Of a DNA stretch of 64,000 nucleotides, positions 735 to 57,100 are shown piece by piece. Below the pieces are notes generated by a model. That model was not told the DNA's origin. It did no database searches and saw nothing but the letters and a program-made list of their open reading frames with translations. The translations under genes were made by a program, and so were the position numbers. Within the stretch, counting starts at the first letter, position 1. Every line of letters begins with the position of its first letter. Source of the stretch: Cephalotus follicularis (Eukaryota; Streptophyta; Magnoliopsida; Oxalidales; Cephalotaceae); NCBI GenBank assembly GCA_001972305.1, contig BDDD01001612.1, positions 62,001 through 126,000 on the forward strand, in the 5' to 3' direction.

Positions 735-3700
735 TGTTGGAAACCTGGCAAGGGTTCCCCATCGATTTGGTCCTAGGACGCAAGTCTGTATAATTTTAAT
801 TTTTCAAAAACACTAAGACTAAAAGTCATGGTCCACACTTACATCATAGTAACAAATTAAAAAGCCTAGGATATCCGTTTAATTAACAAGCGAACTAAAA
901 GCAAGAACAAGCATGCATATAATGCTAAACCGAACACACGTCGGTAACAGTAAAAGTAAGAGTGAAGCAATCATACCAACGTTGGAGGCTCCACCACTTT
1001 GCCGCTACACGCTTGCAGTAGCAACTGCCGATCACCGGGAACACCACCGGTTTTCGGACAGTCCACGTTTTATCCGATGTTGACACCAATGGACTCCAAA
1101 AAATCTGCTCAACCCGAATCTGGTGGAGACAAGCCCGGAACCGCGCCAAAACACGGCGACCAGAGGCGGTGACTCACTGAGTTCAGACTCAGAGAGTCTC
1201 GGTCAACTCGCCATTGACCGGCTTTGACATATGTGGACGCCAACACCACGACGAACACACCGGTGGCCGAGACTCGGTAAGACTCGGCCAGGAATGCAGA
1301 GAACGGAAGGCGGCGAGTCACGGGGTAGACTAGTCGTTCGTCATCAGCGGCCGCCAAGCCACCAAACGGCTCAGCGACACCAGCCCAACAAACCCCGACC
1401 CAAGACTCGCCGTGACTCGGCGCGGAACGCCAAGTCACAGCAGGCCGACGCGTCAACTCGCACAGTTGACTCACCAAACACAAAACGGCCAAAAAACGAC
1501 CGGAAAACGCAAAACAAAGATCAAAATGGATAGAGCCATTGATTGGCTCCACCCACTGTGATCATCGGCGGTGGAAGAGACGCCGGGAGCAAGAATCGGC
1601 CAAAAAACGCAAACGACCGAGAGGGAGAAACGGGGGAGAAGAAGGGAGAAAACGGGAGAGAGAAGGGAGGAGGCTTACCAGGGATGGACGCCCGCCTTCT
1701 CACGGCCTCCGGCGCGAAGCGCCGGTCTCTCCTCCGGCCAGAACGCGCCCCTGCGCGCCAAACGCCATGTGCGTCTCTTTTCTGCCCAAAACGCACGAGT
1801 CGTGCATTATAAGATGAAGAAAAGGGAGAGATGGGAGAGATTGGTGGGAGAGAGTGTGAGAGAGATTAGGAGAGAGATATTTAAAAAATATTTTAAAATG
1901 CATTTTGACTTAATAAAAATTAAGTCTCTCTCTCTCTCTCTCTTATTTCTCTTTTTCTCCTTTAATTAAAATCTCTTTCAATTTTAATTTTGTTTCTACA
2001 AAACGGCCAAAAAACGACCGGAAAACGCAAAACAAAGATCAAAATGGATAGAGCCATTGATTGGCTCCACCCACTGTGATCATCGGCGGTGGAAGAGACG
2101 CCGGGAGCAAGAATCGGCCAAAAAACGCAAACGACCGAGAGGGAGAAACGGGGGAGAAGAAGGGAGAAAACGGGAGAGAGAAGGGAGGAGGCTTACCAGG
2201 GATGGACGCCCGCCTTCTCACGGCCTCCGGCGCGAAGCGCCGGTCTCTCCTCCGGCCAGAACGCGCCCCTGCGCGCCAAACGCCATGTGCGTCTCTTTTC
2301 TGCCCAAAACGCACGAGTCGTGCATTATAAGATGAAGAAAAGGGAGAGATGGGAGAGATTGGTGGGAGAGAGTGTGAGAGAGATTAGGAGAGAGATATTT
2401 AAAAAATATTTTAAAATGCATTTTGACTTAATAAAAATTAAGTCTCTCTCTCTCTCTCTCTTATTTCTCTTTTTCTCCTTTAATTAAAATCTCTTTCAAT
2501 TTTAATTTTGTTTCTTCTTTCTCCTTTAATTAAAATCTCTTTCAATTAATTAAACATGTTTCTCTCTTTAATGATTTAATTAAAGTCTCTCACTTTAAAT
2601 AATTAAAGACCCTCTCTTTAATTAATTTAATTAAAATTAAATCGTGCTCCGGCTGTAAAATCTCTTATACATCAAAATGACTATTAGTAGAACGAAATAC
2701 AAACCACTAATGTCAAAATAATATATACTAGTTAAAAACTAGATTTACCACCAAGCGAGCATGTGTGCAGCATACGTCACTTTTTCAATAATCAGGCGGG
2801 ACCCAAAAGCCCGGTGGATTTCCGATACGATGATAAATTTCTCAGAACATCCCTAAGTTCTGGTATGACTATCCAGCAAATAGTCCCAGTGTGATCTATA
2901 ATCACCCCCGGATCCGCGGACCAAAAAGTACCACGTCTATCAATCGTTAACCGGTTCCCCAGTACTTTATCACTATCATCGGTTTGAGTGCCGCGTATCC
3001 TTCGTCATCTCAGCTCCGACCGCGGACTAGGGTTTGGATAAATGTCACCCCTAGGAAAAACCGCGATAACTATAATTCTATGAACGCCCTGAGACTATGG
3101 GAGATATCCCTGGAAACCTCTCGTTCCCAATCTCCCAGTGCCTGGCCAGGACTTTAAGTCTTCAACGGTCACAGATGTTATAGAGCCTATAACCCTCAAC
3201 ACGGGTATGATGATCCCATCTTGCGAACTCGCCCACACATCTCAATGCAGCTCCCACAAGGCCCAAAGACAACCCTTTTGCCAGCACGTGGCTAGTGCTG
3301 GGGAAGGCGGAAATCAAAGCCAAGCAGTTACTACACAACATATGCCAGCCGCTCAGGTCTACCGATACAACATAAATCACGTATGATCTACTAGTCACCT
3401 TTGACTAAGCACTACCGCGACAATAGGAACTCTATTGACAGAGGTGTTTACTCTCCAAATAGATAACCTATGGTGGGTCGGTTCAGTGTCGTGCCTCTGG
3501 ACTCACCCCACATCAGCTTTAGGATAAAACCCAAATGGCAATGAGATGATCCATCCTCCTATACCATTCATAGCAAGCATAACATGGCAAGTCTTTACGG
3601 TTCATCAATTGCCCTAAGAAAGTGAACCTATGACTTGGAACTTTTGTCACAATGGAGTAAGGATCTCATTCTCATAACCACTCAGGCACAAGATCCAACC

Positions 3701-3921
3701 CTTTACGGACAGGGCGTAATATGTGTATTCTATTGACATGGTGATCAACTGATCCGTAGAGACGGTATGGGATAATACATATAGCAAAATTCCAATCTTT
3801 ACTGAAATATGCACAATAGAACACGAATGGAACTAAGAATGTACGATTCAAGAGTGTGTCATTTGCTAAGAACATATGTCTGCAGCCTCGTCGTGGCTTG
3901 TAGGGACACCCTAATCTAACA
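735..3921 (-). mobile_element. 3.2 kb LTR of a minus-strand LTR retrotransposon inserted in the CACTA element
   Basis: The segment begins TGTTGGAAACC next to the primer site and ends TCTAACA, giving TG...CA termini on both strands. The right edge cuts the CACTA transposase homology, so the LTR element inserted into the CACTA. The partner LTR and target duplication lie outside the window and cannot be checked. It contains no gene. It carries a perfect 518-bp tandem duplication, a purine-rich stretch near 1620-1670 and (CT)n tracts. Its length fits large noncoding elements (LARD-type) or long-LTR Copia elements of the Angela/SIRE kind, but the clade cannot be set without coding sequence. Confidence 0.7.
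1480..2515. repeat. Perfect 518-bp tandem duplication inside the LTR
   Basis: Copy 1 is 1480-1997 and copy 2 is 1998-2515, with a constant offset of 518 bases. All long open frames in copy 1 recur in copy 2 with identical translations, and I see no difference between the copies. Each contains the purine-rich block, a GC-rich block and a (CT)n tract. Immediately after copy 2 a further partial repeat of its last ~45 bases follows (from about 2516). The identity implies a very recent duplication or an assembly duplication. Confidence 0.9.
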
Positions 3922-4929
3922 CATATTACCGAACGAATTGATCACTTGCTAAAGCGAGCCTAGCATTCCGAGTGTCACTTATGAAGATTGGATTTCGTTC
4001 ATAAAATTTTTTCCATGCAAGAGAATCTGCATGATGCCTCATGACACCGTCATCAATGCGTTTGTCTGCATGCCATCTCATGAGGGGAGCAGTTTTTGTT
4101 GACCAAAAATATCTCTACAATCTCGGCTTCATTGGTAAGTACCTCAATTTTTTAACAGCTATCTTTAAGTCGTTACTCGCATTATTTGTTATATCTTGAA
4201 GCATTACAAATGTCACACTTCTCAAGATCTACAGTATCATTACCGAACAACAAAAAACTATTAGGACATGCATCCCATGTTTCATACTTGAACCCTCATT
4301 CTGAAGTCATCTTGTAAGCCTGATGGTATGACGTCGGAATCTTGACATCGAGCCAAACTTTTTGAAAGAATTACAATAACATAGTAAAAGACTTACCTGT
4401 CCATCCATTAAGCACATTTAAGTGTAATAGTTCAATGATAAATGATAGTGTCGTGAACTCCTTACAATTCGGGAACAACTCTGTTTTCGCATCTTTTAAA
4501 AGTTTTAAAAACTTTGCACTATCTTCATCAGTCCCCACAACAGTGTCAAGTTCTGGTTCTTCATTGTCAACAATATTTCCTTCTACTGCTGGAATCCCTA
4601 TTCTCTCGCGTACCATTTCTATCATATTAGCTCCCAAAGTTGATTCAACTTGTACATCATCTCATGTATTATGATTTACAATCATAGTATCACTCACATT
4701 AACTGTATTTCCAATATTACCTTCACCATGTCCTGTCCATTTCCTATAACTCGTTAGAAAACCATCTAGGATCAACTGCTCATTGATAGTATATCTACCA
4801 TGATAATAACGATTAGCACATTTGATACATGGGCAATAGATAAATTCATCCTGATTTTTATTCATATATGCAAAGTTCAATAACATTCTAACCCCTAGAA
4901 CATATGCTCTTAGATTTATTCTGCGTAAA
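3922..4929 (-). pseudogene. TNP2-like CACTA transposase, N-terminal half (decayed)
   Basis: The minus strand encodes the TNP2 family in order. First comes the transposase-associated domain near 4929-4730 (motifs FAYMNKN, CPCIKCANRYY, ILDGFLTSYRKWTGHGE). Next are an acidic linker and LNGWTGKSFTMLL near 4640-4371, then CPNSFLLFGN and CDICNASR near 4270-4200. The last block is MRHHADSLAWKKFYERNP with ARLALASDQF near 4070-3925. The 4929-4662 block ends in an in-frame stop, and later blocks lie in shifted frames, so the gene is broken. The protein would act in the nucleus to cut and paste the element at its CACTA ends. The catalytic half is not in the window. Confidence 0.8.
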
Positions 4930-15304: not shown

Positions 15305-16355
15305 ACTAACCCTTTAAGCCATGAATTTTGTATAACTAATGATCAAAATCTATGTTAATCATTAATGATAGTTATATTTCTCTCTCCCGATTTTAGGTAT
15401 TGCTAGTTACTCTAGCAACAATAAGCTAATAAAAAAATATTAACTCTAAATTTAACAATATCATTTCATACACCAGACAGAGAGACACTTCTCCATGTTA
15501 GTATAAATAAATATCACAAAAAGGACTATAATGCTCAAAACCAAAAACTAAATTTGCCCACTCTACATCCCTAGTAATCAGCAGATTGGATCAGGCAAGA
15601 AGAGGTGCAACCCGGATCTATAATGCTCAAGAAACAATGAAAATAATAAATAAAGATAGACTACGATATCAAAAAGAACAAGCCAAACAAGAAAAAACCA
15701 AAAGATTATCCTCCTATGAAAAGTGATGCATATAGCATGATAGTAAAAGCTAACATAATGAGCCAAACAATATATTCCTTATTTAATTCAACAGCAAAAG
15801 AAGGACCAGATTCACCTCCTCTGAAGATGCTGGCTCCAGAAATCCAGACAGAGATTGGCTGACAGGTGGTTGCCTCAAAACTGGTTTACGCTTGTTGTAG
15901 GATTTTTCTTCTATAACAGCAGCACCTGTCAGTTGATTACTGTAAACTGTTTCACCAAGACTGTCATACTCAACAACTCAACACCAGAGAGAGACAGAGA
16001 GACACTTCTCCATGTTAGTATAGATAAATATAACAAAAAAAAATGAAGATTGGATCTAGAAATCAATACCTGAAATCGGGAGCTTGATTATGGCTGAATA
16101 TTACAGGTATATGCAGAGTTGGAGAAGAAGAAGACCACTTCGACTAAGAACAGCATCCTTATTAAGATAAAGAGTGAAATAGTGGAGGACAGAGACTCGA
16201 GATTTATAGGTTATTTGTAGAGAAATTGGTATTAATTTTTAGGGATTTACTGATTTGGAATTGGGGTTGGGGTTTCAGATTTGATATTGAGTATGAGAGA
16301 TGGAATGAGCGAAATGAGAGGAAAAGTGAAGCTCGGTATACTGATATCACTTGCC

Positions 16356-16463
16356 TTTTGAAACAGTAATGATCGACCGTTTCAAATAGCTATGGCTTTT
16401 TGAAACGGTTGATCAAATGCCGTTTCAAAAGGGGTGTTTCAAAAAAGCAATTTTCTTGTAGTG
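16356..16463 (-). repeat. CACTA subterminal repeats and terminal inverted repeat
   Basis: At least five copies of the motif TTTGAAAC(A/G)G or its complement CCGTTTCAAA, in both orientations, lie within 110 bases of the end. The 16-bp terminus CAATTTTCTTGTAGTG follows at 16448-16463. In the En/Spm family such subterminal repeats bind the element's TNPA-type protein; that role is inferred from the family. Confidence 0.85.
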
Positions 16464-16868
16464 ATTCTCTGAGTACATCTATATAAGTTGACCATGAGAT
16501 TGTACATGCAGATGAATGATGGATGTGAATGTTTTGTCCCCCGTCAAGATTTACATTCATTGATTCATCGTATGTTTAATGGTGGGTTAAACTTGACTAG
16601 AATACATATGGCGTTTTGGTCCCCGTCAAGGTCATATGTACACTAGAGGCAAAAGCAATGATCAGGAATCATACTATTGTATGGTTGGCAAGAGTTTTGC
16701 CTAACTGCAAGTTTCAGTATAATATTTTGGCCCCCGTCAAGGTTATATTGAATATGTTGCAGGACACCGATCCCCACTCGGAAATAAGATCCATGAGACT
16801 TGGATTATTGTTTCCCGTCTCCCATATTTATGAGAATTATGGGATTCGCAAAAAACAGTTGGAGCCTG
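16464..16868. other. Unassigned segment between CACTA end and Gypsy element B, rich in hairpins
   Basis: No family could be recognised. The segment holds three long imperfect hairpins with a shared loop (16511-16764) and a further inverted pair, AGGCAAAA near 16646 and TTTTGCCT near 16695. It is the DNA into which the CACTA inserted on its left and Gypsy element B on its right. It could be part of the Copia element that resumes at 23782, or an unrelated LTR or noncoding element. Confidence 0.5.
16511..16764. repeat. Three hairpins with conserved loop TTTTGGYCCCCGTCAAG and different stems
   Basis: Hairpin 1 has core stem 16526-16532/16553-16559 (tgaatgt/acattca), extended by gatgaat/attcatc. 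Hairpin 2 has stem 16603-16610/16633-16640 (tacatatg/catatgta), extending outward to ctag on both sides with two mismatches. Hairpin 3 has stem 16714-16722/16743-16751 (tcagtataa/ttatattga, one G-T pair), extending outward to ctgcaa/ttgcag. Loops of 20-22 bases share TTTTG(G)(T/C)CCCCGTCAAG. Stem sequences are unrelated between units but complementary within each. Confidence 0.85.
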
Positions 16869-17295
16869 TGTGATGACCCGTCCCTCAGGGTAGCCACCAC
16901 GGATGAATCGTCCAGCAGGAAGGAGGAATTTCCCATTTCCTCTGAGCCAAAAACGCCACGCATGCCAGAAGAAACACACGGCAGAGAATGGACAAAAAAG
17001 GAAATGGCAAAACTGTAAATAACCCTTACATAAAACCATTCCAAAAACTCACCGTTTAACTAAAGGGAACACAACAGCCACAGCCCAAACACACCGTTCC
17101 ACTAAAGGAACGTGCCAGGGGAGGGAGCCGGGACAGAGAATGTAACACTACGTCTTGCCAGGGGACTCGGGCAGGGGATGCCAACATCACACAACAAAAC
17201 ACGACAAACACAATCCAGATCTGCACCTCCATCCTAAGACATGCGTTCCCCGGACGAGCCATCCTCGGGCATGTCCTCATTGGAAACCTAATCGC

Positions 17296-17470
17296 GAACA
17301 TGTCCTCCCCGGGCCTGTCCTCCCCGGGCATGTCCTCCTCGGGAATGACCTCCTCGGGCATGGCCTCTCAAGGCATGTCATCCCCGGGCACGTCCTCCTC
17401 AAGCATGTCCTCCCTCGACAACACGTTCTCCTCGGACAACATGTTCTCCTCGGACAGAGCCCGACAACAA
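17296..17470. repeat. 15-bp minisatellite in the LTR of element B
   Basis: About ten imperfect units of GGGCATGTCCTCCCC, then a TCCTCGGACAACATGTTC pair. The homologous array in the other LTR is at 21530-21720 and differs in unit number and order. Confidence 0.75.
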
Positions 17471-18279
17471 GTGCCAGACCACAACATAAACCAACCCAGC
17501 CTTAACAACCCTGAGGTCAGGACACGAGCCCCACAGGCTGACCCCCGCCCCGGGGAGATCCCCCAACCTGCCCGACCTCGGGTAACCTTCTCGGTAAACA
17601 AGCAGAAGATCATAACTCAGCGTTTCAAGTAAAAACACGAAATCTCATCATTAAACACCACAAATCATCTCAAGAATACATCATATTATCATTTCAAAAT
17701 AATATATATCATGTTCACAAAATATCGTCCCCTATTCAAAAGCCGAGGACTCATACAAAAGAATATCATTTCCTCCTCAGGCCGAGGACCATACAACAAA
17801 AGAATAAAACCCATATGCCCCATAAATGCAAGCAAGGACGAGCCCGTGAAGCCGACAGCTCAGCTCATCCCCCGCAGACTACCTTATCAACCCAAAAGAC
17901 TGCCCTGGCAGCCACAGCAGCTTCCTTTGCAAAACAACTGGAAGGGGATTAGTCCAAATAACTAGTGAGCAAGAACAAGCATTCTCCAGAGCATCCACAA
18001 CCACTGGACGCACAATGAAAATATAAAATCAAGCCCCACTAGGCAAAACAGAACAAGGCAGAGGTAAATAAAAGGAACACAAACTCAGCAATATCACAAG
18101 GCTCCACTCCTCGAAGTCTGCCAAAGGAAAAAAGAGTCAAACATGAATAAGCGGAGGATTCTAACAAAAGATAACATCACAAGTAAAACAATTGTGCCCA
18201 AGATAAACAAGAGAAGAGGAACAACACCACAATATCCCGTGGTCAGCCGCCATACCAGGCAAAACACACACATCTATCT

Positions 18280-18510
18280 AGGCCACAGCCCACTAACATC
18301 TTTCCGGACCTCGTCCGCTAGTATCTATCCGAGCCAGAGCTCGCTATCCACCATAGTATCCGTGGTCTGCCGCCATACCAGGGCCAAACACACACACACA
18401 CACCACCTATCCAGGCCTCACCCGCTAGAATCTATCTGGACCTCGTCCGCTAGTATCTATCTGAGCCACAGCTCGCTAGTATCTATCCGAGCCACAGCTC
18501 GCTAACCCCG
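18280..18510. repeat. ~28-bp repeat array in the LTR of element B
   Basis: Imperfect units built on CGCTAGTATCTATCCGAGCC, interspersed with variants ending CTCGTCC. The homologous array is at 22530-22770. Confidence 0.75.
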
Positions 18511-19544
18511 CCCAAATGGGAAGGAACGGAGGACTCCCCTGCACTCACACTCAGCATACCATCATAGACAATAGTACACCGCAGATCCAGGTATGGAACC
18601 CAGGGGCAGTTCCCATATAGCATCCCATCATACACAATGAGAACACTAAGGAGAGTTGATCGTCGGACGTACCCTTTACCACCGACCATAACCCATGCAT
18701 CCCGTCCGCACATCCCAGTGCATCCCACATATCAGAGGAACCAAAAATAAACAAAGAGATCGTCTGACACAAACAACAACCGTCAGAGGAACAACATACA
18801 TTCAACCCAAGAACCATCCGAGCTCTCAAGCTCTGCCAAGAATAGGATTACAACATAAACAAGGGTAACAAGGATCCAAATCCCACGAAAAACGTTCAAC
18901 CAGAGGATAACAATAGGCACACAAAATATCAAGTAAAAGAAAGAGGAGAATGTCCCACTCACAAATTGCCTCAAGCTACTGTCGACCAACCCCAAGATGC
19001 TCCGTCACAGCAACAAGTTCCTCGTATGCAAGCTAACACATATCAGATCGAGAAGAAGACATAACACATACATGAGCAGAAAACACAACCAACCAAACCA
19101 GGCTATCATCCTCCTCCTCGGCCCCAGCGTAACGTGCCACCACTCTACACAAACCAGGGAAGAGGAGAGCTCACCTTCACAGCTCAAAAGCAAAAGAGGG
19201 CAACCAAAACGCTCACGGAAGAAGGGAAAAGAAGAAGAAGAAACCAGCTCTCTCTCACTTCTCTCTCTCAAAGCCGAACTCCACTAACCAAGAAAGCACT
19301 GCCAGCCCACTTACCAACTCCCATCTTATCATCAACACCTTGGGAAAAACACAAAGCTTCTCCAAGAAGCTAATCCATATATCATATAATAATCCAAACT
19401 AATCATGTCCACATGTTTAAATAACTTACCATAATTCCCACTTAAGTCCTTTCCATGTGCCAAACAAGGCCTTAATTTATAATCCTCTAAAATAGGTACG
19501 GGGTATTACATCCACCACACCCTAGGAAATTTTGTCACCAAAAT

Positions 19545-20958
19545 TTAAAACACAGGTGGAACACTTATAACCAAAACATGATCCAAAGAAACAAACTTAC
19601 CTTCATCCTCAGCAGGAGTGGTAAGGCCTGACCCCGTCTTCAAATTGTACACCCTTGCAGTGGCCATAGGTCTTCCAGGTGGTCTACTACTACTAGCTCT
19701 CGAACCAGAGGCTTGCCGAGCAGCCGCTCCACTACCCGGTGCACCCAACTGATTGGTCCTCTACGTTGGTTCTCTGGCCTTTCACTGTACATCCGAGGAT
19801 GTAAATCCTTGTGTCCCCGTTGCACCCTGCAACCTCAATGGACATCGATTCCTCAAATGCCCGGTCTGACCACATTGGTAACAAGAACGTGTCTCCACTC
19901 CACACTCACCAACATGGTGTCGACCACACTGCTAACAACGTGAGGGTGATGAAAAAGTCGATGCACTCTCCATCTCAGGAGTTCCATGAGAAAAACTAGG
20001 GACCGAAGCCTGAGTCCACTGCTGGGGTGATCCTCCCCAACTCCCCTTACCAACTGGTCCACTGGCAGACGAAGGTCCCCTCGTCCTCTGATTCTTGGAG
20101 GAACTCTCCTCCACTTCAAGATTCGAAGCACACCGTTTCTGTCCTCGATTCTGTCTGCTCCTCTGCTCATTTATGCTTAGCTTGACCCTCATGGCCGACT
20201 CCACCAGATTACCAAAAACATTCCAATCAATTGTTGCTACAGAATGCCGTATCTTCGGCATTAAGCCGTTCAAAAACCTCTGGCATCTCTCCTTCTGGTC
20301 AGCCACCAAGGCAGGAGCAAAATGAGACAACTCCAAAAACTTATGCTCATACTGTGACACCGACATAGAACCTTGATACAAATGCAAGAATTCCCTCCTC
20401 CTCTCCTGGACATAGGTACAAGGAAGAAAATGCTGAAGAAAGTCCTTCTTGAACAAAGTCCAGGTGATCTCCAGGGGATCCTCAAACCTAGCACTCAAAG
20501 CTTCCCACCAACGCAAGGCTCCTTGCTCCAACAAAAAGGATGCATTGCCCACCCATTAGTCCACGGATATATCAATCCTTTCAAATATCCACTCCAAACA
20601 GTTTAACCAAGTCTCTGCATCAGCGGGGTTCCCAGATCCTTCAAAAACAACCGCTCCAAGGCATTGCATACGCTCAAGTGGAAAAGGTTAAGGTTTTTAC
20701 TGCCCCAACAGTTTGAGCCCAAATGGTAAAAGCCTGTAACAACTCATACTGACTTCCCGCAACAATCGGAGGAGGTACTTGAGCAGTAGACTGCCCAGCA
20801 TGGTCCTCGACCTCTGCCGGCCTGCTTTCCCTAGCCTCAACTCCAGGATTTGCCTGCACATCTGGCTGAACATTCTGTGGTTCCCGATCCCCAGCTGGTC
20901 TAGAGGTTGCCCTGCCCCCAATCCGACCACGACCTCTGGTGCCACTACGGCGCATCAT
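19545..20958 (-). pseudogene. Gag region of element B
   Basis: Reading leftward: an N-terminal segment (20958-20674, MMRRSGTRGRGR), a retrotransposon gag core (20552-19932) with LEQGALRWWEAL, EYEHKFLELSHFAP-type motifs and a basic tail, then zinc-knuckle sequence near 19900-19820 (CYQCGQTGHLRNRCP). The frame ends soon after a TARVYNLKTG spacer that precedes protease in autonomous relatives. No protease, RT, RNase H or integrase follows before the LTR. The copy is broken. Confidence 0.82.
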
Positions 20959-21106
20959 CCTTCACACAGAAGGCAAGAAACCACCGTAACAACATGTTCT
21001 ATATGTATGTCACTCATGATATGCAAAACCCAACATATAAAACCCCAGAAAGCATCAACACACAACAAGAAGGAAGAAAAACATGCACTATAACCACAAA
21101 CCGGTC

Positions 21107-21118
21107 GCTCTGATACCA
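21107..21118 (-). other. Primer binding site of element B
   Basis: Minus-strand TGGTATCAGAGC, a perfect initiator Met-tRNA match, two bases from the LTR at 21121. Confidence 0.85.
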
Positions 21119-21120
21119 AC

Positions 21121-23776
21121 TGTGACGATCCGTCCCTCAGGGTAGGCACCACGGACGAATCACCCGGCATGAAGGAGGAATTTCCCATCTCCTCTAAGCC
21201 AAAAACGCCACACATGCCAGAAGAAACACACGACAGAGAAGGGACAAAGAAGGAAATGGCACAACTGTAAATAACCCTTACATAAAACCATTCCAAAAAC
21301 TCACCGTTTAACTAAAGGGAACACAACAGCCACTGCCCAAATGCACCGTTCCATTAAAGGAACGTGCTAGGGGAGGGAGCCGGGGCAAAGAACGTAACAC
21401 TACGTCTTGCCAGGGGTCCCGGGCAGGGGATGCCAACATCACACAACACAACACGACAAACATAAGACAGGCCTGCACCTCCATCCTAAGACATGCCTTC
21501 CCCGGACGAGCCACCCTTGAGCATGTCCTCATTGGACAACTAACCGCGGACATGTCCTCATTGGACAACTAACCGCGGACATGTCCTCCCCGGGCATGTC
21601 CTCCCTGGGCATGACCTCCCCGGTCATGCCACCCTGGGCATGTCCTCCTCGGGCATTTCCTCCCTCGACAACAAGTTCTCCTCGGACGTCTCCTCAGACA
21701 ACATGTTTCTCCTCTGACAGAGCCCGATGACCAGTGCTAAACCACAACATAAACCAACCCAGCATTAACAACCCCGAGGTCAGGACACGAGACCCACAGG
21801 TCCCGCCCCGGGGAGATCCCCCAACCTGCCGGACCTCAGGTAACCTTCTCGGTAAACAAGCAGAAGATCGTAACACAACGTTTCAAGTAAAAACACGAAA
21901 TCTCATCATTAAACACCATAAATCATCTCAAGAATACATCATATTATCATTTCAAAATAATATATATCATGTTCACAAAATATCATCCCCTATTCAAAAG
22001 CCGAGGACCCATACAAAAGAATATCATTTCCTCCTCAGGTCGAGGACCATACAATAAAAGAATAAAACCCATATGCCCCATGAATGCACGCAAGGACGAG
22101 CCCGCGAAGCTGGCAGCTCTGCTCATCCCCTGTAGACTACCTTATCAACCTAAAAGACTGCCATGGCAGCCACAACAGCTTCCTCTACAAAACAACTGGG
22201 AGGGGATTAGTCCGAATGACTAGTGAGCAAGAACAAGCATTCTCCAGAGCATCGATAACCACTGGACGCACAATGAAAATATATAATCAAGCCCCACTGA
22301 GGAAAACAGAACAAGTCAGAGGTAAACAAAAGGAACACAAACTCAGCAATATCACAAGGCTCCACTCCTCGGAGTCTGCCAAAGGAAAAGAGAGTCAAAC
22401 ATCAATAAGCGGAGGATTCCAACAAAAGATAACATCACAAGTAAAAAAACTGTGCCCAAGATAAACAAGAGAAGAGGAACAACACCACAATATCCTGTGG
22501 TCAGCCGCTATACCAGGCAAAACACACACATCTATCCAGGCCACAGCCCGCTAACATCTATCCGTACCTCATCCGCTAGTATCTATCCGAGCCACACCTT
22601 ACTATCCACCAAAGTATCCGTGGTCTACTGCCATACCAGGCCAAACACACACACACACACACACACCACCTATCCAGGCCTCGCCCGCTAAAATCTATTT
22701 GGACCTCGTCCGCTAGTATCTATCTGAGCCACAGCTCGCTAGTATCTATCAAAGCCACAGGTCGCTAACCCCGGCCAAATGGGAAGGAACGGAGGACTCC
22801 CCTGCACTCACACTCAGCATATCATCATAGACAATAGTACACAGAAGATCCAGGTCTAGAACCCAGGGGCAGTTCCCACATAGCATCCCATCATAGACAA
22901 TGAGAACACTAAGGAGAGTTGATCCTCGGACGTACCCTTTACCACCGACAGTAACCCATGCATCCTGTCCGCACATCCCAGTGCATCCCACATATCAGAG
23001 GAACAAGGAATAAAGAAAGAGATCGTCTGACACAAACAACAACCGTCAGAGGAACAACATACATTCAACCTAAGAACCATCCGAGCTCTCAAGCTCTGCC
23101 AAGAACTGGATTACAAAATAAACAAGGGTAACAGGGATTCAAATCCCACAGAAAATGTTCAACCAGAGGATAACAACAGGCACACGAAATATCAAGTAAA
23201 AGAAAGAGGAGAATGTCCCACTCACAAATCACCTCAAACTACCGTTGACCAACCCCAAGATGCTCTGTCACAGCAACAGGTTCCTCGTCTGCAGGCTAAC
23301 ACATATCAAATCAAGAAGAAGACATAACACATGCATGAACAGAAAACACAACCAGCCAAACCAGGCTATCATCCTCCTTCTCAGCCCCAGCGCAACGTGC
23401 CACCACACAACACAAACCAGGGAAGAGGAAAGCTCACCTTCATAACTCAAACGCAAAAGAGGGCAACCAAAACTCTCACGGAAGAAGTGGAAAGAAGAAG
23501 AAGAAGAAACCAGCTCTCTCTCACTTCTCTCTCTCAAAGCCAAACTCCACTAACCAAGAAAGCACTGTCAGCCCACTTACCAACTCCCATCTTATCATCA
23601 TCACCTTGGGAAAAACACAAAGCTTCTCCAAGAAGCTAATCCATATATCATATAATAATCCAAACTAATCATGTCCACATGTTTAAATAACTTACCAAAA
23701 TTCCCACTTAAGTCATTTCCATGTGCTAAACAAGGCCTTAACTTATAATCCTCTAAAACAGGTACGGGGTATCACA
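21121..23776 (-). repeat. Right LTR (5' LTR) of element B
   Basis: Starts TGTGACGATCCGTCCC directly after the primer site and ends GGGGTATCACA. Carries the same two arrays (21530-21720 and 22530-22770) and a (CA)n run near 22646-22667. Confidence 0.9.
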
Positions 23777-23781
23777 GCCTA

Positions 23782-24950
23782 AGAGGCAAACATACCTAAA
23801 ATATTAAAGACCAAATCTTTTAAACATTGAAGAAACGGGAGATTGTTTTCAATATGCAAAAAGACAATAACAGAGCGAGATGAAAGTAATCATTCTTACC
23901 TATGGCACTGTAGACTTTCTCATATTGGTGAGAAAATAGTTCACAGGTTGATCTCGGATTGATACTTTGATTTTTCAGAGTATCAACCATTTCCAACTTG
24001 TGAACCATGTCTAAAAGGAAAAATGACCAAATCTCTCTTCACATGGAAAGGGGAAAGGTCCCCAGAACTATTAGGTCTAATGCACACAGATGTGTGTGGA
24101 CCAATGACAGTGGATGCCAGAGATGGATATTCCTACTTCATAACCTTTACTGATGATCATTCTCGTTTTGGTTATTTATACCTAATGCGGTATAAATCTA
24201 AAGCCTTTGATAAATTTAAGGAGTTCAGACTAGAAGTAGAAAAAAAGATTGGAAAGTGTCTGAAAACACTTCGATCAGATCGAGGTTGTAAGTATCTCTC
24301 CACTGAGTTTTTAACTTATCTTAGAGATAATGGGATTATCTCTCAATGGACGCCTCCTGGAACACCACACCATAATGGTGTGTCTGAAAGGAGAAATCGC
24401 ACCTTGCTTGACATGGTATAGAGCATGATGAGTGATGATGAACTTTCACTATCTTTCTGGGGTTATGCCTTGGAGACTGCTGTTCTCATATTAAACAGGA
24501 CTCCAACAAAATCTGCTCTCAAGACTCCATATGAGATATGAAACTAAAAAAAACACAATCTTATTTATCTGAGAATATGGGGCTGCTCTGAATTTGTCAA
24601 GCAGGCAGCAGCAAATAAATTGAATTTTAGGTCCGTAAAATGTAAACTTGTAGGATATCCTAAAGAAACAAGAGGATATTATTTCTATAACCCACCTGAC
24701 AACAAAGTGTTTGTAGCCAGGCAAGCTACTTTTCTTGAAAAGAACTTCATGTTGGAAGACAATAGCGGGAGTATGATAGAGCTGGATGAGCAATCCACAG
24801 CACCACGAGTTGAGAACCAATCCTCTCCTTTTCAAATTAATGAGCCTGAAACAACCACAGACACACTACCTCTGCGTAGAACTATCCGAATACCTAGGGA
24901 ACCCGAGATATACAATTGTAGTTTTCTCATTGAAGGAACCCAAGAGGTAA
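23782..24950 (+). mobile_element. Copia element A, left visible part: pre-integrase and integrase
   Basis: Plus-strand Ty1/Copia homology begins with the gag-pre-integrase HHCC segment near 23905-24020 (LWHCRLSHIGEKI, CEPCLKGK). The integrase core follows at 24023-24421 (GLMHTDVCGPM, FITFTDDHSRFGYLYL, LRSDRG, PHHNGVSERRNRTLLDM) and the integrase C-terminal part at 24620-24950 (KLVGYPKETRGYYFYNP). The style resembles the Angela/BARE group. The 5' LTR, gag and protease are not recognised; the element resumes at 27724 after an inserted Gypsy element. It is broken in several places. Confidence 0.85.
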
Positions 24951-26462
24951 TGTAACGCCCCTGATCCGAGTTCACTCTAGGCTCAAAGTGAGTCTCAAGG
25001 ATCCGGTGCGTTACATGGGGTGTGACCATTAACCATTTTAACCAGATAACTTATTATTAACATTTATTCTTAAATACTCATAATTTCAATATATCTTATC
25101 ACATTCTATATTAATTCTTAATATTACATTCCATAATAATAATTGTCAACATCTTATGTTTACAAAGGATCTGTCATAAAACGTTTCACAGCGAAACATA
25201 TTAACTTATTACATCATCACTAGTTTATACAAAATATTATTGTATAACGTAATTTCTTTCCAAAACATCTTTTGTGAGCTCCTTCTAAGGCTCGACTTTC
25301 CACATTCAATCGTTTCCTGAAAATTTATTTGAAAACCAAAAACATTGAAAGGAATGAGCATAAATAGCCCAGTAAGGTTTTCAAAATAACATACTTCATA
25401 ACATTCCTTATTCTGATCATATTTCATAAATCAAAAATCATTTCATAAAACTGAGGGTCATAAAATTGTAAAGAACTCCTTTCTGAACCACGCTTCACCG
25501 ACATTACTAAACCTTAGCATCAAAACACATGATATAATTAAACTTAAAACACTAGAGTGCTAGAAACTTCAAGTCGTCCTCTGACCTCTCGTTTCTTGGA
25601 TCCTCTGACTATGAAATCCTCTGTCATGCCATCCCCTGCCATGTGGTCCTCCGCCATGGGTCCTCTGCCATGCAGTCCTCCACCATGGTTCCTCTGCCAT
25701 GAGTCCTCTGCCATGGTTCCTCTACCATGGCTCCTCCACCACGCGTCCTCCGCCATGGTTCCTCCGCCATGGGTCCTCCGCCACGGGTCCTCAGCCACGC
25801 GTCCTCCGTCGCGTGTCCTCTGCCATGGTTCATCCGCCGCACGTCCTCCGTCGCGCGTCCTCTGCCGCACGTCCTCCGCCATGCCGTCCTCGGCCATGGT
25901 TCCTCCACCATGGGTCCTCCGCCACGGGTCCTCCGCCACCTCCGCCATTGTTCCTCCGCCATGGTTCCTCCACCATGGTTCCTCCGCCACGCGTCCTCCG
26001 CCACGCGTCCTCCGCCCTGTCGTCCTCTGCCATGGTTCCTCCGCCACAGGTCCTCCGCCACGGTTCCTCCACCACGGGTCCTCTGCCACACATCCTCCGC
26101 CGCGCGACCTCTGCCATGCGTCCTCCGCCCTGCCATCCTCTGCCATGGTTCCTCCGCCACGGGTCCTCCGCCACGTGTCCTCTGCCACACGTCCTCCGCC
26201 GCGTGACCTCTGCCATGTGTCCTCCGCCCTGCCGTCCTCTGCCATGGTTCCTCCGCCACGGGTCCTCCGCCACGTGTCCTTTGCCACACGTCCTCCACCG
26301 CGTGACCTCTGCCATGCGTCCTCCGCCCTGCCGTCCTATGCCATGGTTCCTCCGCCATGTAAAGGAATATTGTGATAGTTACTTTACTCCACAACCAATA
26401 AGACTTAGAACCAGCACACTTCCATAAATAATAACTTAAATAAAAAAATTCTGGTTATTACA
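24951..26462 (-). repeat. Left LTR of Gypsy element C
   Basis: Runs from TGTAACGCCCCTGATCCG to CTGGTTATTACA; its last ~265 bases are nearly identical to 27460-27723. More than half of it is the 14-bp minisatellite at 25570-26360. Confidence 0.9.
25570..26360. repeat. 14-bp GC-rich minisatellite with a 98-bp higher-order period
   Basis: Roughly 55 tandem units of CCTCCGCCAYGGGT and variants fill the LTR. Between about 26090 and 26340 they are organised in a seven-unit, 98-bp higher-order repeat. Because the unit has almost no stop triplets in either direction, long frames stay open on both strands and in several phases; these are not genes. Confidence 0.9.
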
Positions 26463-27459: not shown

Positions 27460-27723
27460 CCGCGTGACCTCTGCCATGCATCCTCCGCCCTGCCGTCCTC
27501 TGCCATGGTTCCTCTGCCACGGGTCCTCCGCCACGTGTCCTCTGCCACACGTCCTCCGCCGCGTGACCTCTGCCATGCGTCCTCCGCCCTGCCGTCCTCT
27601 GCCATGGTTCCTCCGCCATGTAAAGAAATATTGTGATAGTTACTTTACTCCACAACCAATAAGACTTAGAGCAAGCACACTTCCATAAATAATAACTTAA
27701 ATAAAAAAATTCTTGTTATTACA
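27460..27723 (-). repeat. Right LTR remnant of Gypsy element C
   Basis: Matches the right-hand end of 24951-26462, including the last minisatellite units and the terminal CTTGTTATTACA, next to the ggtaa duplication. Confidence 0.88.
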
Positions 27724-29322
27724 GGTAAACCTCGTGAATGATGATCCGGTTAGCTACAAAGAGGCCATATCAAATATGGACTCAAAGAAGTGGCTTAAAA
27801 CCATGAATTCCGAAATGGAATCCATGTACTCCAACCAAGTTTGGAATCTAGTGGATGCACCCGAGGGAGTTAAACCCTTAGGTTGCAAATGGATTTTCAA
27901 AAGAAAGCTTCGAGATGATGGGAAGGTGAAAACCTTCAAATCTAGGCTCATAGCCAAAGGCTACAATCAACGATAGGGGATCGATTATGAGGAAACTTTC
28001 TCCACCATGGCCATGCTTAAATCCATTCGGATTTTACTTGCTATAACTGCACATCTTGACTATGAGATATGGTAAATGGATGTGAAAACTACCTTCCTTA
28101 ATGGAAACATTGATGAAGACATATATATGACCCAACCTGAGAGTTTCATATCGGCTGGTAAGGACCAGAAAGTGTGCAAACTTCAAAAGTCCATTTATGG
28201 ACTAAAGCAAGCTTTGAGAAACTGGAATATCCGATTCGATGAAACAATCAAAGAGTTTGGTTTCATAAAGAATCGAGATGAATCCTGTGTGTACAAAAAG
28301 CTTAGTGGAAGATCAGTGACTTTTGTTGTCGTGTACGTTGATGACATGATGCTTATCGAAAATGATGTAATCATGTTGTCCAGCGTAAAGACCTGGCTAT
28401 CCACAGTTTTCTCCATGAAAGACTTAGGAGAAGCCTCCTATATCCTAGATATAAAGGTCTATCGGGATAGATCAAAAAGGATGATAGGGTTGTCCTAGTC
28501 TTTATATATTGACAGAGTGCTTAAGCGTTTTAGCATGAAAAATTCCAAGAGAGGTTACCTATCTCTCTGTCATGGGTTTTCACTTTCCAAACAGATGTCT
28601 CCCAAGACAGGTGAAGAAAGACAAAGGATGATGCATATTCCTTATGCTTCAGTAATTGGAAGTATCATGTATGCTATGCTTTGCACCATACCTAATATCA
28701 CCTACGCTGTAAGTGTTACAAGAAAATATCAGTCAGATCCAGGTGAGCAACACTGGAAAGCTGTAAAAGATATCCTCAAGTACCTTAACAGGACTAAGGA
28801 TTTATTCCTAATATATGGAGGAAAAGGTTTGAAGATTGAGGGTTATACTGACTCTAATTTTCAAACATATGTGGATGATTTAAAGTCAACCTCGAGGTTT
28901 GTATTCACCTTAAATAGTAGACCAGTGAGCTGGAAGAGTTCCAAATAGCCTACCACTGCGGATTCAGTCACAAAAGCTGAATACATTGCGACATCGAAAG
29001 TTTCCAAGGAAGGTGTATAGATGAAGAAGTTCATCGAAGATTTGGGTGTAGTTCCTGGCATTGACGATCTGGTATCTTTATACTGAGACAACAATGGAGC
29101 CATAGCGCAGGCCAAGGAGCCAAGATCACACTCAAAATCTAAACACATTCTCAGGCGTTTCCACCTTATACGTGAGAAAATTGATCATGGAAATATAAAA
29201 GTGGAGCGTTTACCAGGGGAAGACAACACTGCAGACCCGCTTACTAAAGCATTACCAAATGCAGTCTTTGACCGACACCTGGAAGACACTACGGCAACTG
29301 GCTTTAGTCCTTAGTTGGGGAT
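27724..29322 (+). mobile_element. Copia element A, right part: reverse transcriptase and RNase H
   Basis: Plus-strand Copia RT starts at 27724 (WNLVDAPEGVKPLGCKWIFK), continues with MDVKTTFLNGNIDEDIYM, SIYGLKQALRNWN and VVYVDDMMLI, then DLGEASYILDIKVYRDRS to about 28498. RNase H follows from about 28517 (YTDSNF, RPVSWKSSK, ADPLTKAL) to near 29310. A short G-rich tract (ttagttggggat) lies before the LTR. The frame is interrupted in several places. Confidence 0.87.
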
Positions 29323-31035
29323 TGTTAGAGATAAAGTCCTCCAAGACAGTGCCAAGCTTGCATTTACTTTATCCTGTATATAACGATTTATATTCAATAA
29401 AGATGTTTATATTTTATCATTGGCTATGAGTTCATTATTTTAATACATGTTTATTTAATAATAAATGAATGCCCTGTAATAAAGTTAGAGAATCAAGTTC
29501 ATGATGAGATCATGATGTGAGAATTGGAATCTCCATATACTTTATTTCGAATCTTCCTGGTTATAAGATTGACACCTAGGGCATAATCAATCTGGATAAA
29601 CCAGCACGTACTGTCGGATCGGTAAGCAGAGATTGAATGATCTCACACTCACTCGCATGGTCGATGCTATGAAAACTACGTGGGTGCTCGTTGACTGATT
29701 AACGAGTTCACTAAAGGTGACTAGAAAATAGAATGTATGTATGGAGTTTTACATACATGTCAGACAGAATTCTAGTCTTACAACAGTGCAAGTGGTCCTT
29801 AGACATGAGCCGTCACTGGATGTCTTGTGCATAGGACGCTTTGTTTTGATGGTGCTTAAATACATATTCAATGAAATGTATACAGGCATTAGTTGGACAT
29901 AGTATGCTTATGTATGGAGACATGTGAACGTGCAATAATGAATACATTGCTTCTAGTAAAGGAAGATTATGCTCATAATGTTTTTCGTTAGTAATTTAGT
30001 GCATGACCAGGCTAGCCACAATATCAAGTGTCTGACATCGTTGGTAAAATATTAGAGGGGCACCTTTAATATTATTTAAAGCTGACGAAAGATAATCAAG
30101 TAGCTAAAGATTAAGTTATTAGGGTCCGACATAATCCATACCATAGATTTAATCAGAGTATTGTCAATGGAAAGACTATACGTGCATGTACCTGTAAATC
30201 GTTGTTCATGGATAATTCATATTACCATGGGGTCGTTATGCATTGCTAGATGTTGATGTCGACCTGTAGGATGCCCAAGATTAAATTGATAATTAATCTT
30301 GGAAGAAAAGAATTAAAAGAGTTTTAATTTGAAAAATCCGAGAGGGTGTTTTCCTTTTATGTGATAATAAATACCTAAATGGATAATCGTGGGTTTCACG
30401 ATTTAATCCTATGGACAGCGTAATAGTGAACCCATAGGGTCACATGCAATACAGACTAATATTCTCAACACCATATGAGAGAAAAATAATTTAGGATATT
30501 ATTTTCTAATTACATTTAATAACATTAAATGGCCTTAATGATGATTAAGGAAAGTAAATAGTTATCTATGGAAAGGAAGGTTATTTATGCTAAGTAGGAT
30601 ACTTTTCCAAAATAGGAGATTGAGGATTAGTGTTAACACGTTTTTGACTAGCATCGAAAACTGAGAACACGTCTTCTTCTTTGTCTTCACTTAAACTCTC
30701 TCAAACAAAAAGAAAAAGTAGTGACCTGCAAAAGAAACAAAGAAGGCTTGAAAGAAGTCCTATGTTAGATATTAGAAGCTCAGTATGGATACCTTGGAGG
30801 CCTGCCTATATTGGAGGCTAGAACCCATGATTGTCAATGAAGGAACCGCTCCATTTTGTGAGTAAATTCCGCATGTTCCTCCTTATTTAATCTCTATATT
30901 TCTAACTGTGTATATATGCTCAATGATCCTGGACTGGACTTTATGGTTTGTTGATTATGAGATGATAACGGATTTTTTCAGGTTGCATGCATCTAGATTT
31001 TTAATTAGTTGTTTGCTCACCATAAGGTTCCAACA
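29323..31035 (+). repeat. 3' LTR of Copia element A
   Basis: TGTTAGAGATAAAG at the polypurine tract through GGTTCCAACA, about 1.7 kb, followed by gagga as the presumed target duplication. Length and layout fit the Angela/BARE group. It contains two adjacent perfect hairpins (29687-29706, ctcgtt/aacgag; 29733-29758, atgtatgt/acatacat). The partner 5' LTR was not found in the window. Confidence 0.8.
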
Positions 31036-55849: not shown

Positions 55850-57100
55850 GGAATATTGTTATAGAGTCCTCCTGTGCCAGTAGACCTTCGGGAGTCCCCG
55901 CATAATTGAGTGACATATTATAGACAAGGTACGGCTATGCCTGTTGATTGTCATGTTTGAGACCTTACAGGATAACCCGTTCATAATCTTCATTTCCGTC
56001 ATGAAGTATTATGGATGCAGGCCACACATTATGATCATGGATTCCTCCTGTGCCAGTGGACCTTCGGGAGTCCCCACACAGTCGAGTGACATATTATAGT
56101 TGATGAGTAGATCGTACACATCCCCATGCTATGATTTTTGGGTCAGAGCTTATATAGATCCCCATATCATGGTTATTGGGTTTGAGCTTACGGATCCTCA
56201 TTTTAGTCATTGGGTAGTATCGTATAGATCCCCATATCATAGTCGTTGGGTATAGTATCGTATCGATCCCCACATCATGACTACTAGGTATGAGCTTACA
56301 AATCCCCATATTGTAGTTGTTGAGTAGATCTTACAGATCCTCATTTTGGGCTGCTTTGCCCCCTCAGGAGACCGACATTATGATCTTATGGCCAGTGTTA
56401 TCCTATGCCCACACAGCTATGACACGGAGAGTGTTTGGACTGTGATGGATGTACCTCATGGTTGATTGTTCCCATGGTATGATTATGGTATGAATATAGT
56501 GTCTGCAGGCCATTGGCCTTTGATGTGACATTTGGACTAGCTACGTATACCACTGCTTAGGGACGGTCGGTATACAGGAGCAGTTCGCACTTGCTATTTA
56601 TGCATATGACTTGCCATGTGCACAGGATCATTGTATTGCACGCATATCATACTATTATGCTGGTACGTCTCTAAGCATTTATACAAATGACATGCCACGC
56701 ATATATTATTATACTGTTGCAAGCATTACATACTATTATGCTGTTGCATTAGAGGGCATGCATCGTTATACTGTTGCACGCATAACATACTATTATGCTG
56801 TTGCATTAAAGGACATACATTATTATATTGTTGCATGCATAGCATAGTATACCTACACGACATTATGTCGCCGACCCATTTCCCCTGTATGCGGAATGGG
56901 TCACGCTCAAGCCCAGGTGATGGATTGCTTTGAGGCAGGCTGAGACGGATGGGTTCTCTACAGCAGGTTTGGTTAGCCATGTTGCTTATGGATTTGTATA
57001 TGAATTGTATAAAAGGGGTCTTGAGTTTACAAGGCCTGTTATGTAAAAGAGACAAATGTAAAGGTATTATATAGTTATGTTTTATTCAGCTATCGACCTG
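55850..57100 (+). other. Downstream part of the S2 LTR with degenerate repeats
   Basis: Contains a series of AGATCCCCATATCATG-type words (about 56100-56350) and CATACTATTATGCTGTTGCA words (about 56630-56850). Both are degenerate tandem structures in LTR sequence, with no gene seen. Confidence 0.6.

What the first reader, a model, noticed from the sequence alone, without database searches (positions are those of the whole stretch)
16511..16764. Three hairpins with one shared loop and three unrelated but self-complementary stems
Each unit has a 20-22 base loop carrying TTTTG(G)(T/C)CCCCGTCAAG, closed by perfect or G-T-paired stems of 7, 8 and 9 bp that extend outward to about 14-18 bp with few mismatches. 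The stems share no sequence between units. Simple duplication would keep stems alike; random drift would break pairing. A conserved loop with covarying stems suggests either selection on RNA or DNA structure, or an insertion mechanism that generates palindromes around a fixed core. No annotated feature explains it, and it lies between a CACTA end and a Gypsy LTR.
Basis: seen in the sequence. Interest (0 to 1): 0.72.

Follow-up and report, generated by a model that had tools for sequence, protein, structure and literature searches.

The report
Four-hairpin RNA array in retrotransposon leader
The three hairpins are the surviving part of a fixed set of four RNA hairpins, all ending in the same 18-letter tip, in the untranslated leader of an abundant jumping gene of what looks like a plant; they probably mark its RNA for packaging or a similar step, a kind of signal that is poorly known in plants.

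Summary
The window (1.58 Gb genome, plant-like by its elements) holds hairpins 2-4 of a fixed array of four in the 1.6-1.8 kb leader of a Copia LTR retrotransposon, between primer-binding site and gag. A CACTA end replaces most of hairpin 1; a Gypsy element inserted downstream. The cap occurs 6701 times (two mismatches allowed) against 74 for a reversed control. In 53 of 58 places examined the same four recur in order and spacing, so stems are not made anew. Each "loop" folds: GU bulge, UUUGGC/GUCAAG, CCCC tetraloop. The inner stems pair in 95% of cells against 39% at random places. Sense folds better than antisense in 55 of 55 copies (window z -5.5 against -0.65), and G-T cells far exceed A-C: the selected molecule is sense RNA. 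Nine other Copia leaders lack the array. One clade of gag-deleted copies has multiplied; 14 of 21 such loci show all four caps. I read it as a cis-acting, multivalent signal on the genomic RNA, most likely for packaging or dimerization (0.5). Export and translation remain open. No RNA or binding data were available.

The parts
16436..16463 (-). Terminal inverted repeat of a CACTA element abutting the 3' arm of hairpin 1; the element's other end was not found in the window
   Evidence: Exact match to CACTACAAGAAAATTGCTTTTTTGAAAC on the - strand, none expected by shuffles. Copia leader homology starts at 16465. The TIR scan with one mismatch found no + strand partner. That CACTACAAGAAAA is typical of CACTA ends is recalled.
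16465..16504 (+). Remnant of hairpin 1 (part of its 3' arm) and spacer; cap absent
   Evidence: Aligns to L016 from 3018 on and to the hairpin 1 3' arm in A1.
16505..16575 (+). Hairpin 2; cap 16531-16548
   Evidence: Fold; alignment A1; unit list.
16597..16646 (+). Hairpin 3; cap 16613-16630
   Evidence: Fold; A1; unit list.
16705..16762 (+). Hairpin 4; cap 16724-16741
   Evidence: Fold; A1; unit list.
16763..16868 (+). Rest of the conserved Copia leader up to the Gypsy insertion
   Evidence: Part of the 16465-16868 match, 87% to L016 and 91% to L025.
16869..23776 (-). Later insertion of a Gypsy-type LTR element (LTRs 16869-19510 and 21121-23776, 91.6% alike), gag frame on the - strand; flanks GCCTG/GCCTA look like a 5-bp target duplication with one change
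   Evidence: Self-BLAST; PF03732 and PF19259 in the 206-aa frame; flanks read.
23776..24950 (+). Copia element resumes: end of leader, a deletion of gag and protease, then gag-pre-integrase/integrase region
   Evidence: BLAST against L016 and L025; the deletion junction has one match in the genome at up to three mismatches, this one.
27723..28070 (+). Further Copia pol segment after another insertion
   Evidence: 88% to L016 and 92% to L025.
29554..31035 (+). Probable 3' LTR of the same Copia element
   Evidence: 82.6% to L025 265-1752, which ends just before its PBS at 1755.

Best explanation
The three units are hairpins 2-4 of a four-hairpin RNA array in the 5' leader of a high-copy Copia LTR retrotransposon. 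Inferred: the array is a multivalent cis-acting recognition element on the genomic RNA. The cap (GU bulge, UUUGGC/GUCAAG, CCCC tetraloop) would be read by a protein, most likely the element's Gag, while the stems only present it, so stems are free to change if both arms change. Four copies would give avidity, sorting this RNA into virus-like particles and perhaps assisting dimerization. Gag-deleted copies would be packaged in trans by full-length relatives, as reported for BARE-2.
For: Four or more caps in 53 of 58 distinct places held, three caps in 4 (window included), none in one chance hit; spacings 89-93, 81-83 and 109-112 except L059, a copy with deletions. Caps in the genome 6701 against 74 reversed-pattern controls, two mismatches allowed. 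Over 29 units of four paralogous hairpins, 95.7% of cells pair against 75.1% shuffled and 23-43% slid; covariation score 0.593 against 0.220. Inner six pairs 1261 of 1320 in 56 copies, 38.5% at random places. Window sense z -5.5, antisense -0.65; sense more stable in 55 of 55 copies; G-T 501, A-C 76 cells at fixed geometry. Among 12 copies the second half of the leader is 0.81-0.94 identical and the first part of gag 0.81-0.89. Nine other Copia gag loci have the PBS close to gag and no array. Gag-deletion junction: 35 matches in 21 loci, control 0; counting L001, 14 of 21 loci show four caps, 3 three, 1 two, 1 one, 2 none; inner pairs 374 of 384; the 18 copies placed form one clade.
Against: No expression, binding or packaging data. 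Within single hairpins the evidence for compensation is moderate: common variants keep pairs 30 to 7 and rare ones 54 to 153, but random canonical partners show the same contrast (0.688 and 0.305), and 7 of 500 controls reach the observed 0.811. The paralogue signal rests on four stems, and the count of pairs changed on both sides (10) is reached by 19 of 500 shuffles. Cap sites are only a little less variable than others (0.18 against 0.20-0.24 of sites with a common variant). The whole second half of the leader is conserved, not the hairpins alone. The gag-deleted clade fits any cis-acting role; its support is 0.835, and outer flanks were not checked to show separate insertions. The array begins about 1.1 kb downstream of the PBS, farther than the 380-nt 5' region sufficient in yeast Ty1 (passage in PMC4974528).
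Confidence: 0.5

Rival explanations
1. RNA export element: the repeated caps recruit a host export factor so that unspliced genomic RNA leaves the nucleus, as the retroviral CTE and the IAP RTE do (both recalled).
For: Repeated recognition modules, sense-RNA specificity and presence in gag-deleted copies fit it. A leader that may be an intron would need such an element: an acceptor-like AG just upstream of the gag ATG in 9 of 12 aligned copies and GTGAGT in U5 in 7 of 12. Passages of PMC12786077 describe structured elements (RTE, MTE) that promote export of retrotransposon RNA and say that CAR-like motifs in plant elements remain unclear.
Against: No host-factor motif was tested and splicing was not shown; the predicted spliced junction has no genomic copy, which is uninformative.
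Confidence: 0.2
2. Translation control: the array shapes ribosome movement (shunt, internal entry or repression) through a leader with many upstream ATGs.
For: Leaders of 10 copies hold 47-59 upstream ATGs over 1.57-1.84 kb.
Against: Four like caps suggest a repeated binding module more than a single ribosome path; splicing could remove the leader altogether (inference).
Confidence: 0.15
3. Dicer substrates or small-RNA source: the hairpins persist as precursors of regulatory RNAs or as silencing decoys.
For: Long hairpins of 27-35 pairs, cap included, in one copy.
Against: What the four share is the cap, not the stems, the opposite of what small RNAs need (inference).
Confidence: 0.05
4. DNA palindromes: cruciforms, or an insertion process that makes inverted flanks round a fixed core.
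For: Inverted flanks round a shared core in the window.
Against: Strand asymmetry of folding and of G-T against A-C; the same four units at 53 of 58 places.
Confidence: 0.02
5. No function: an old tandem duplication of a hairpin that hitch-hikes in a conserved leader.
For: Diverged-duplicate look of stems 1/2 and 3/4; the whole second half of the leader is conserved, not only the hairpins; within-hairpin compensation is only moderate.
Against: Four diverged stems all still pair, 95.7% against 75.1% shuffled.
Confidence: 0.08

Closest known systems
BARE-1/BARE-2 (barley Copia): packaging and dimerization signals, and gag-less BARE-2
   Same: Copia element with an untranslated leader; a gag-defective subfamily that has multiplied and keeps packaging and dimerization signals. 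Seen as abstract and passages of PMC3735527.
   Different: The paper on the BARE signals (Tanskanen 2007) was seen only as a citation. BARE-2 lacks the gag start codon by an 8-bp deletion; here about 700 nt of gag are gone. No four-fold array is mentioned in the passages read.
Retroviral packaging signals (psi)
   Same: Structured hairpins near PBS and gag on genomic RNA (recalled; PMC5035971 and PMC8096270 seen as search listings only).
   Different: Here one cap is repeated four times at fixed spacing and lies over 1 kb from the PBS.
CTE of MPMV and RTE of IAP (export elements)
   Same: Repeated recognition modules in one RNA element (CTE recalled; RTE named in a passage of PMC12786077).
   Different: CTE sites are internal loops in one stem (recalled); here they are four separate hairpin tips.
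Yeast Ty1 5' cis-acting region
   Same: Cis-acting RNA needed for retrotransposition (passage in PMC4974528).
   Different: The minimal Ty1 keeps 380 nt of the 5' end; the array here is farther in and repeated.

Membership tests
Ty1/Copia LTR retrotransposon | Copia gag, integrase before reverse transcriptase | tested here: met
   PF14223, PF00098, PF22936, then PF13976, PF00665, then PF25597, PF07727 in three successive stop-free frames of L015
Ty1/Copia LTR retrotransposon | LTR followed by a PBS for tRNA-iMet | tested here: met
   TGGTATCAGAGC with at most one mismatch upstream of the array in 12 of 20 loci, and at another place in L022; that this is the iMet PBS is recalled
Angela/BARE lineage | Lineage-specific reverse transcriptase/integrase phylogeny | not tested
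   Resemblance judged from memory only
Packaging signal | Lies on the genomic RNA in cis, sense strand, near gag | tested here: met
   Between PBS and gag; sense strand folds. Genomic RNA itself was not seen
Packaging signal | Kept in a gag-defective subfamily that has multiplied | tested here: met
   14 of 21 gag-deleted loci show all four caps; 18 copies placed form one clade; mobilisation in trans is inferred, outer flanks not checked
Packaging signal | Binds Gag and is needed for RNA entry into particles | not testable with these tools
   Needs RNA and protein
Known Rfam RNA family | Match above gathering score | tested here: not met
   In window 16000-17000 one hit, 18.8 bits against a gathering score of 60, on the other strand and outside the caps
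Leader intron | Donor and acceptor sites used in RNA | tested here: inconclusive
   Acceptor-like AG in 9 of 12 copies, GTGAGT in U5 in 7 of 12, near variants in 2, no aligned letters in 3; no RNA data

The most novel reading that the evidence does not exclude
The leader, PBS included, is an intron of the Gag mRNA, spliced from U5 to a few bases before the gag ATG. The array sits inside it, so only unspliced RNA carries both the primer site and four like Gag-binding caps. Splicing would thus sort each transcript into message or genome, and gag-deleted relatives would compete for Gag through the same caps.
Probability: 0.2. Interest if true: 0.68.

Novelty: new variant of a known kind. Interest (0 to 1): 0.52.

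Why it matters
How plant LTR retrotransposons, which fill much of large plant genomes, choose their own RNA for packaging is little known; a 2025 review of the plant life cycle has no occurrence of the term packaging signal in its main text (find in PMC12786077). A short cap repeated four times on diverged stems is a concrete, testable candidate, and the gag-deleted clade is a natural trans-complementation test. If the caps bind Gag, one 18-nt module explains both selective packaging and parasitism.

Tried and rejected
Palindrome-making insertion and DNA cruciforms were rejected on strand asymmetry and on the constancy of the four units. A non-standard spacing at C49 suggested a second family; L059 proved to be the same family with deletions. 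Paired opposite 10-mers at C35 were chance hits (L060). Generality over Copia was tested on nine of the 150 listed gag loci, chosen by me among high scorers, and not found; the nearest things were one pair of hairpins with like 11-nt loops in L068 and one place with at most five mismatches to the cap in L072. The window's second Copia element near 62 kb also has a leader of about 50 nt by eye. Genomic copies of a predicted spliced junction were sought and not found. The window's own gag deletion is private to this copy. The exact cap was absent from viral contigs, and three strings of it from the paper library. The listing for retrotransposon, gag, hairpins, conserved loop, leader and plant showed no title of the kind. 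No other plant genome was searched, so spread beyond this genome is unknown.

The contrast between common and rare variants (Fisher 3e-10) looked like strong support at first; the partner-shuffled control shows most of the same contrast, so I do not lean on it.

Rows dropped before counts: L004, L005 repeat L025 and L006, L007 repeat L024 (58 places of 62 loci). L004-L007, L029 (the window), L060 (chance hit) and L059 (deletions) were left out of the 56-sequence set, which holds L001 and the window. Two of 83 units were skipped before the unit list, and 29 of the remaining 81 were used for A2. The window was too short for the sense/antisense test, 55 of 56 remaining. Three of 20 fetched gag-deleted loci (L080, L085, L092) were left out of the tree.

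Full report
OBSERVATION. The three units are present at the stated place. The sense strand of 16505-16768 folds at z -5.5 with no shuffle of 200 as good. Among hairpin groups with like loops in the window, the others lie in a tandem array at 25.6-26.4 kb or form one weaker group near 56.7 kb.

WHAT IT IS. The window is part of contig C1612 of an unnamed 1.58 Gb genome; that it is a plant is inferred from its elements. The 10-mer of the loop occurs in clusters with repeated spacings. Twenty clusters fetched with about 3 kb flanks share a longer element, which runs from a tRNA-type primer-binding site (12 of 20 loci) through a long leader into Copia gag and pol. Pfam gives Retrotran_gag_2, zinc knuckle, gag-pre-integrase, integrase core and RVT_2 in Copia order in L015. 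In L016 the hairpins lie 0.2-0.6 kb upstream of the gag ATG. In the 21 copies aligned each position has its own stem, the same in each copy. Of 58 distinct places held, 53 show four or more caps with at most four mismatches, four show three (the window among them), and one is a chance hit. In the window a CACTA end abuts the 3' arm of hairpin 1 and a Gypsy-type element inserted after hairpin 4; the Copia remnant continues to a probable 3' LTR near 31 kb.

ANATOMY. Folded, each unit has a stem, then a GU bulge on the 5' side, a 6-bp helix UUUGGC/GUCAAG and a CCCC tetraloop (single copies give the same cap in most hairpins, while decayed hairpins 1 and 3 of L059 do not). Within 56 copies the cap positions have the same majority letter in all four hairpins; apart from one change in hairpin 2 (position 17, 15 of 56) the commonest changes are at the CpG, as expected of decaying methylated copies. 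Within two mismatches the 18-nt cap occurs 6701 times against 74 for the reversed pattern, the equivalent of about 1,700 arrays of four.

SELECTION ON RNA. Over 29 units from the four positions, 95.7% of cells pair against 75.1% when partners are shuffled and 23-43% when slid; ten of 16 pairs change on both sides, which 19 of 500 shuffles also reach. These are effectively four independent stems, not 29. Within single positions, variants found in at least 10% of copies keep pairing 30 to 7 while those under 5% do so 54 to 153 (Fisher 3e-10), but random canonical partners give 0.688 and 0.305 for the two classes and 7 of 500 reach the observed 0.811 for the common class, so this part is moderate. 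At fixed geometry, without choosing pairs, G-T cells number 501 and A-C 76. All 55 copies tested fold better in sense than antisense; of six of them tested by 40 shuffles, sense z was -5.66, -5.60, -6.56, -3.36, -1.63 and -5.80, antisense between -1.97 and 0.34. The window gives -5.5 and -0.65. The selected molecule is therefore most likely the sense RNA.

CONTEXT. Among 12 copies the second half of the leader is as conserved as the first part of gag (0.81-0.94 from L016:2292 to 3541, against 0.81-0.89 from 3542 to 4091; the aligned ends beyond that fall to 0.60-0.70), while the LTR end and first half of the leader are mostly 0.58-0.70, with 0.79-0.86 round the PBS. The leader measures 1.57-1.84 kb in ten copies and holds 47-59 ATGs. 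Just upstream of the gag ATG stands a pyrimidine-rich stretch with an acceptor-like AG in 9 of 12 copies; U5 has GTGAGT in 7 of 12, near variants in 2 and no aligned letters in 3. Other donor-like sites exist inside the leader. This suggests, without proving it, a leader intron. Nine other Copia gag loci have the PBS within about 250 nt of the gag match and no array.

A NATURAL TEST. L001 lacks most of gag but keeps the array. Its deletion junction occurs 35 times in 21 loci, often twice per locus 119 bases apart, with no control match. Of 20 further loci fetched, 13 show four caps, 3 three, 1 two (its fetched piece ends there), 1 one and 2 none; with L001, 14 of 21 show four. Inner pairs hold in 374 of 384 cells against 1261 of 1320 in the 56 copies and 38.5% at random places. 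The 18 copies placed in a tree of 73 form one clade (support 0.835, midpoint root), 88-98% alike. A gag-less lineage has thus multiplied with its array, as BARE-2 is reported to have done (passages of PMC3735527). This points to a signal used in cis and served in trans; it does not choose between packaging, dimerization and export.

MECHANISM. Most likely the caps are four like binding sites for Gag (or a partner) that select this RNA for particles. A loop-loop contact through the GGCC of an opened cap could aid dimerization; this is inference. Export and translation control are the main rivals.

NOVELTY. Structured packaging regions are known in retroviruses (recalled) and reported as conserved signals in BARE. 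A four-fold array of one cap on diverged stems in a plant Copia leader was not met in the listings, and three strings of the cap are in no held paper. The library lacks most subscription journals; the BARE-2 paper was seen only as a citation.

Noticed in passing
L016:2040-2240: The first half of the leader is packed with variants of the palindrome AAGCGTCGACGCTT and is hypervariable among copies. Palindromes near the PBS could act in RNA dimerization.
   Followed up: no
L001 and L076-L095: Gag-deleted, multiplied subfamily, often with a duplication 119 bases apart at the deletion junction.
   Followed up: partly
window 16869-23776: Gypsy-type element with 2.65 kb LTRs and only about 1.6 kb inside, carrying a gag frame: looks like a non-autonomous gag-only element.
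   Followed up: partly
window 25544-26427: G+C-rich tandem array with long open frames on both strands, inside the Copia remnant.
   Followed up: no
window 56671-56881: On the - strand, several TGCAACA-type repeats, three of them as hairpin loops.
   Followed up: no
cap of the hairpins (e.g. window 16724-16741): The complement TTGACGGGGGCC resembles a universal stretch of bacterial and plastid 16S rRNA (recalled, not tested); probably coincidence but a trap for motif searches.
   Followed up: no
L073:2740-2940: A second copy of the hairpin 4 region 2.4 kb after a full array: rearrangement or nested fragment.
   Followed up: partly
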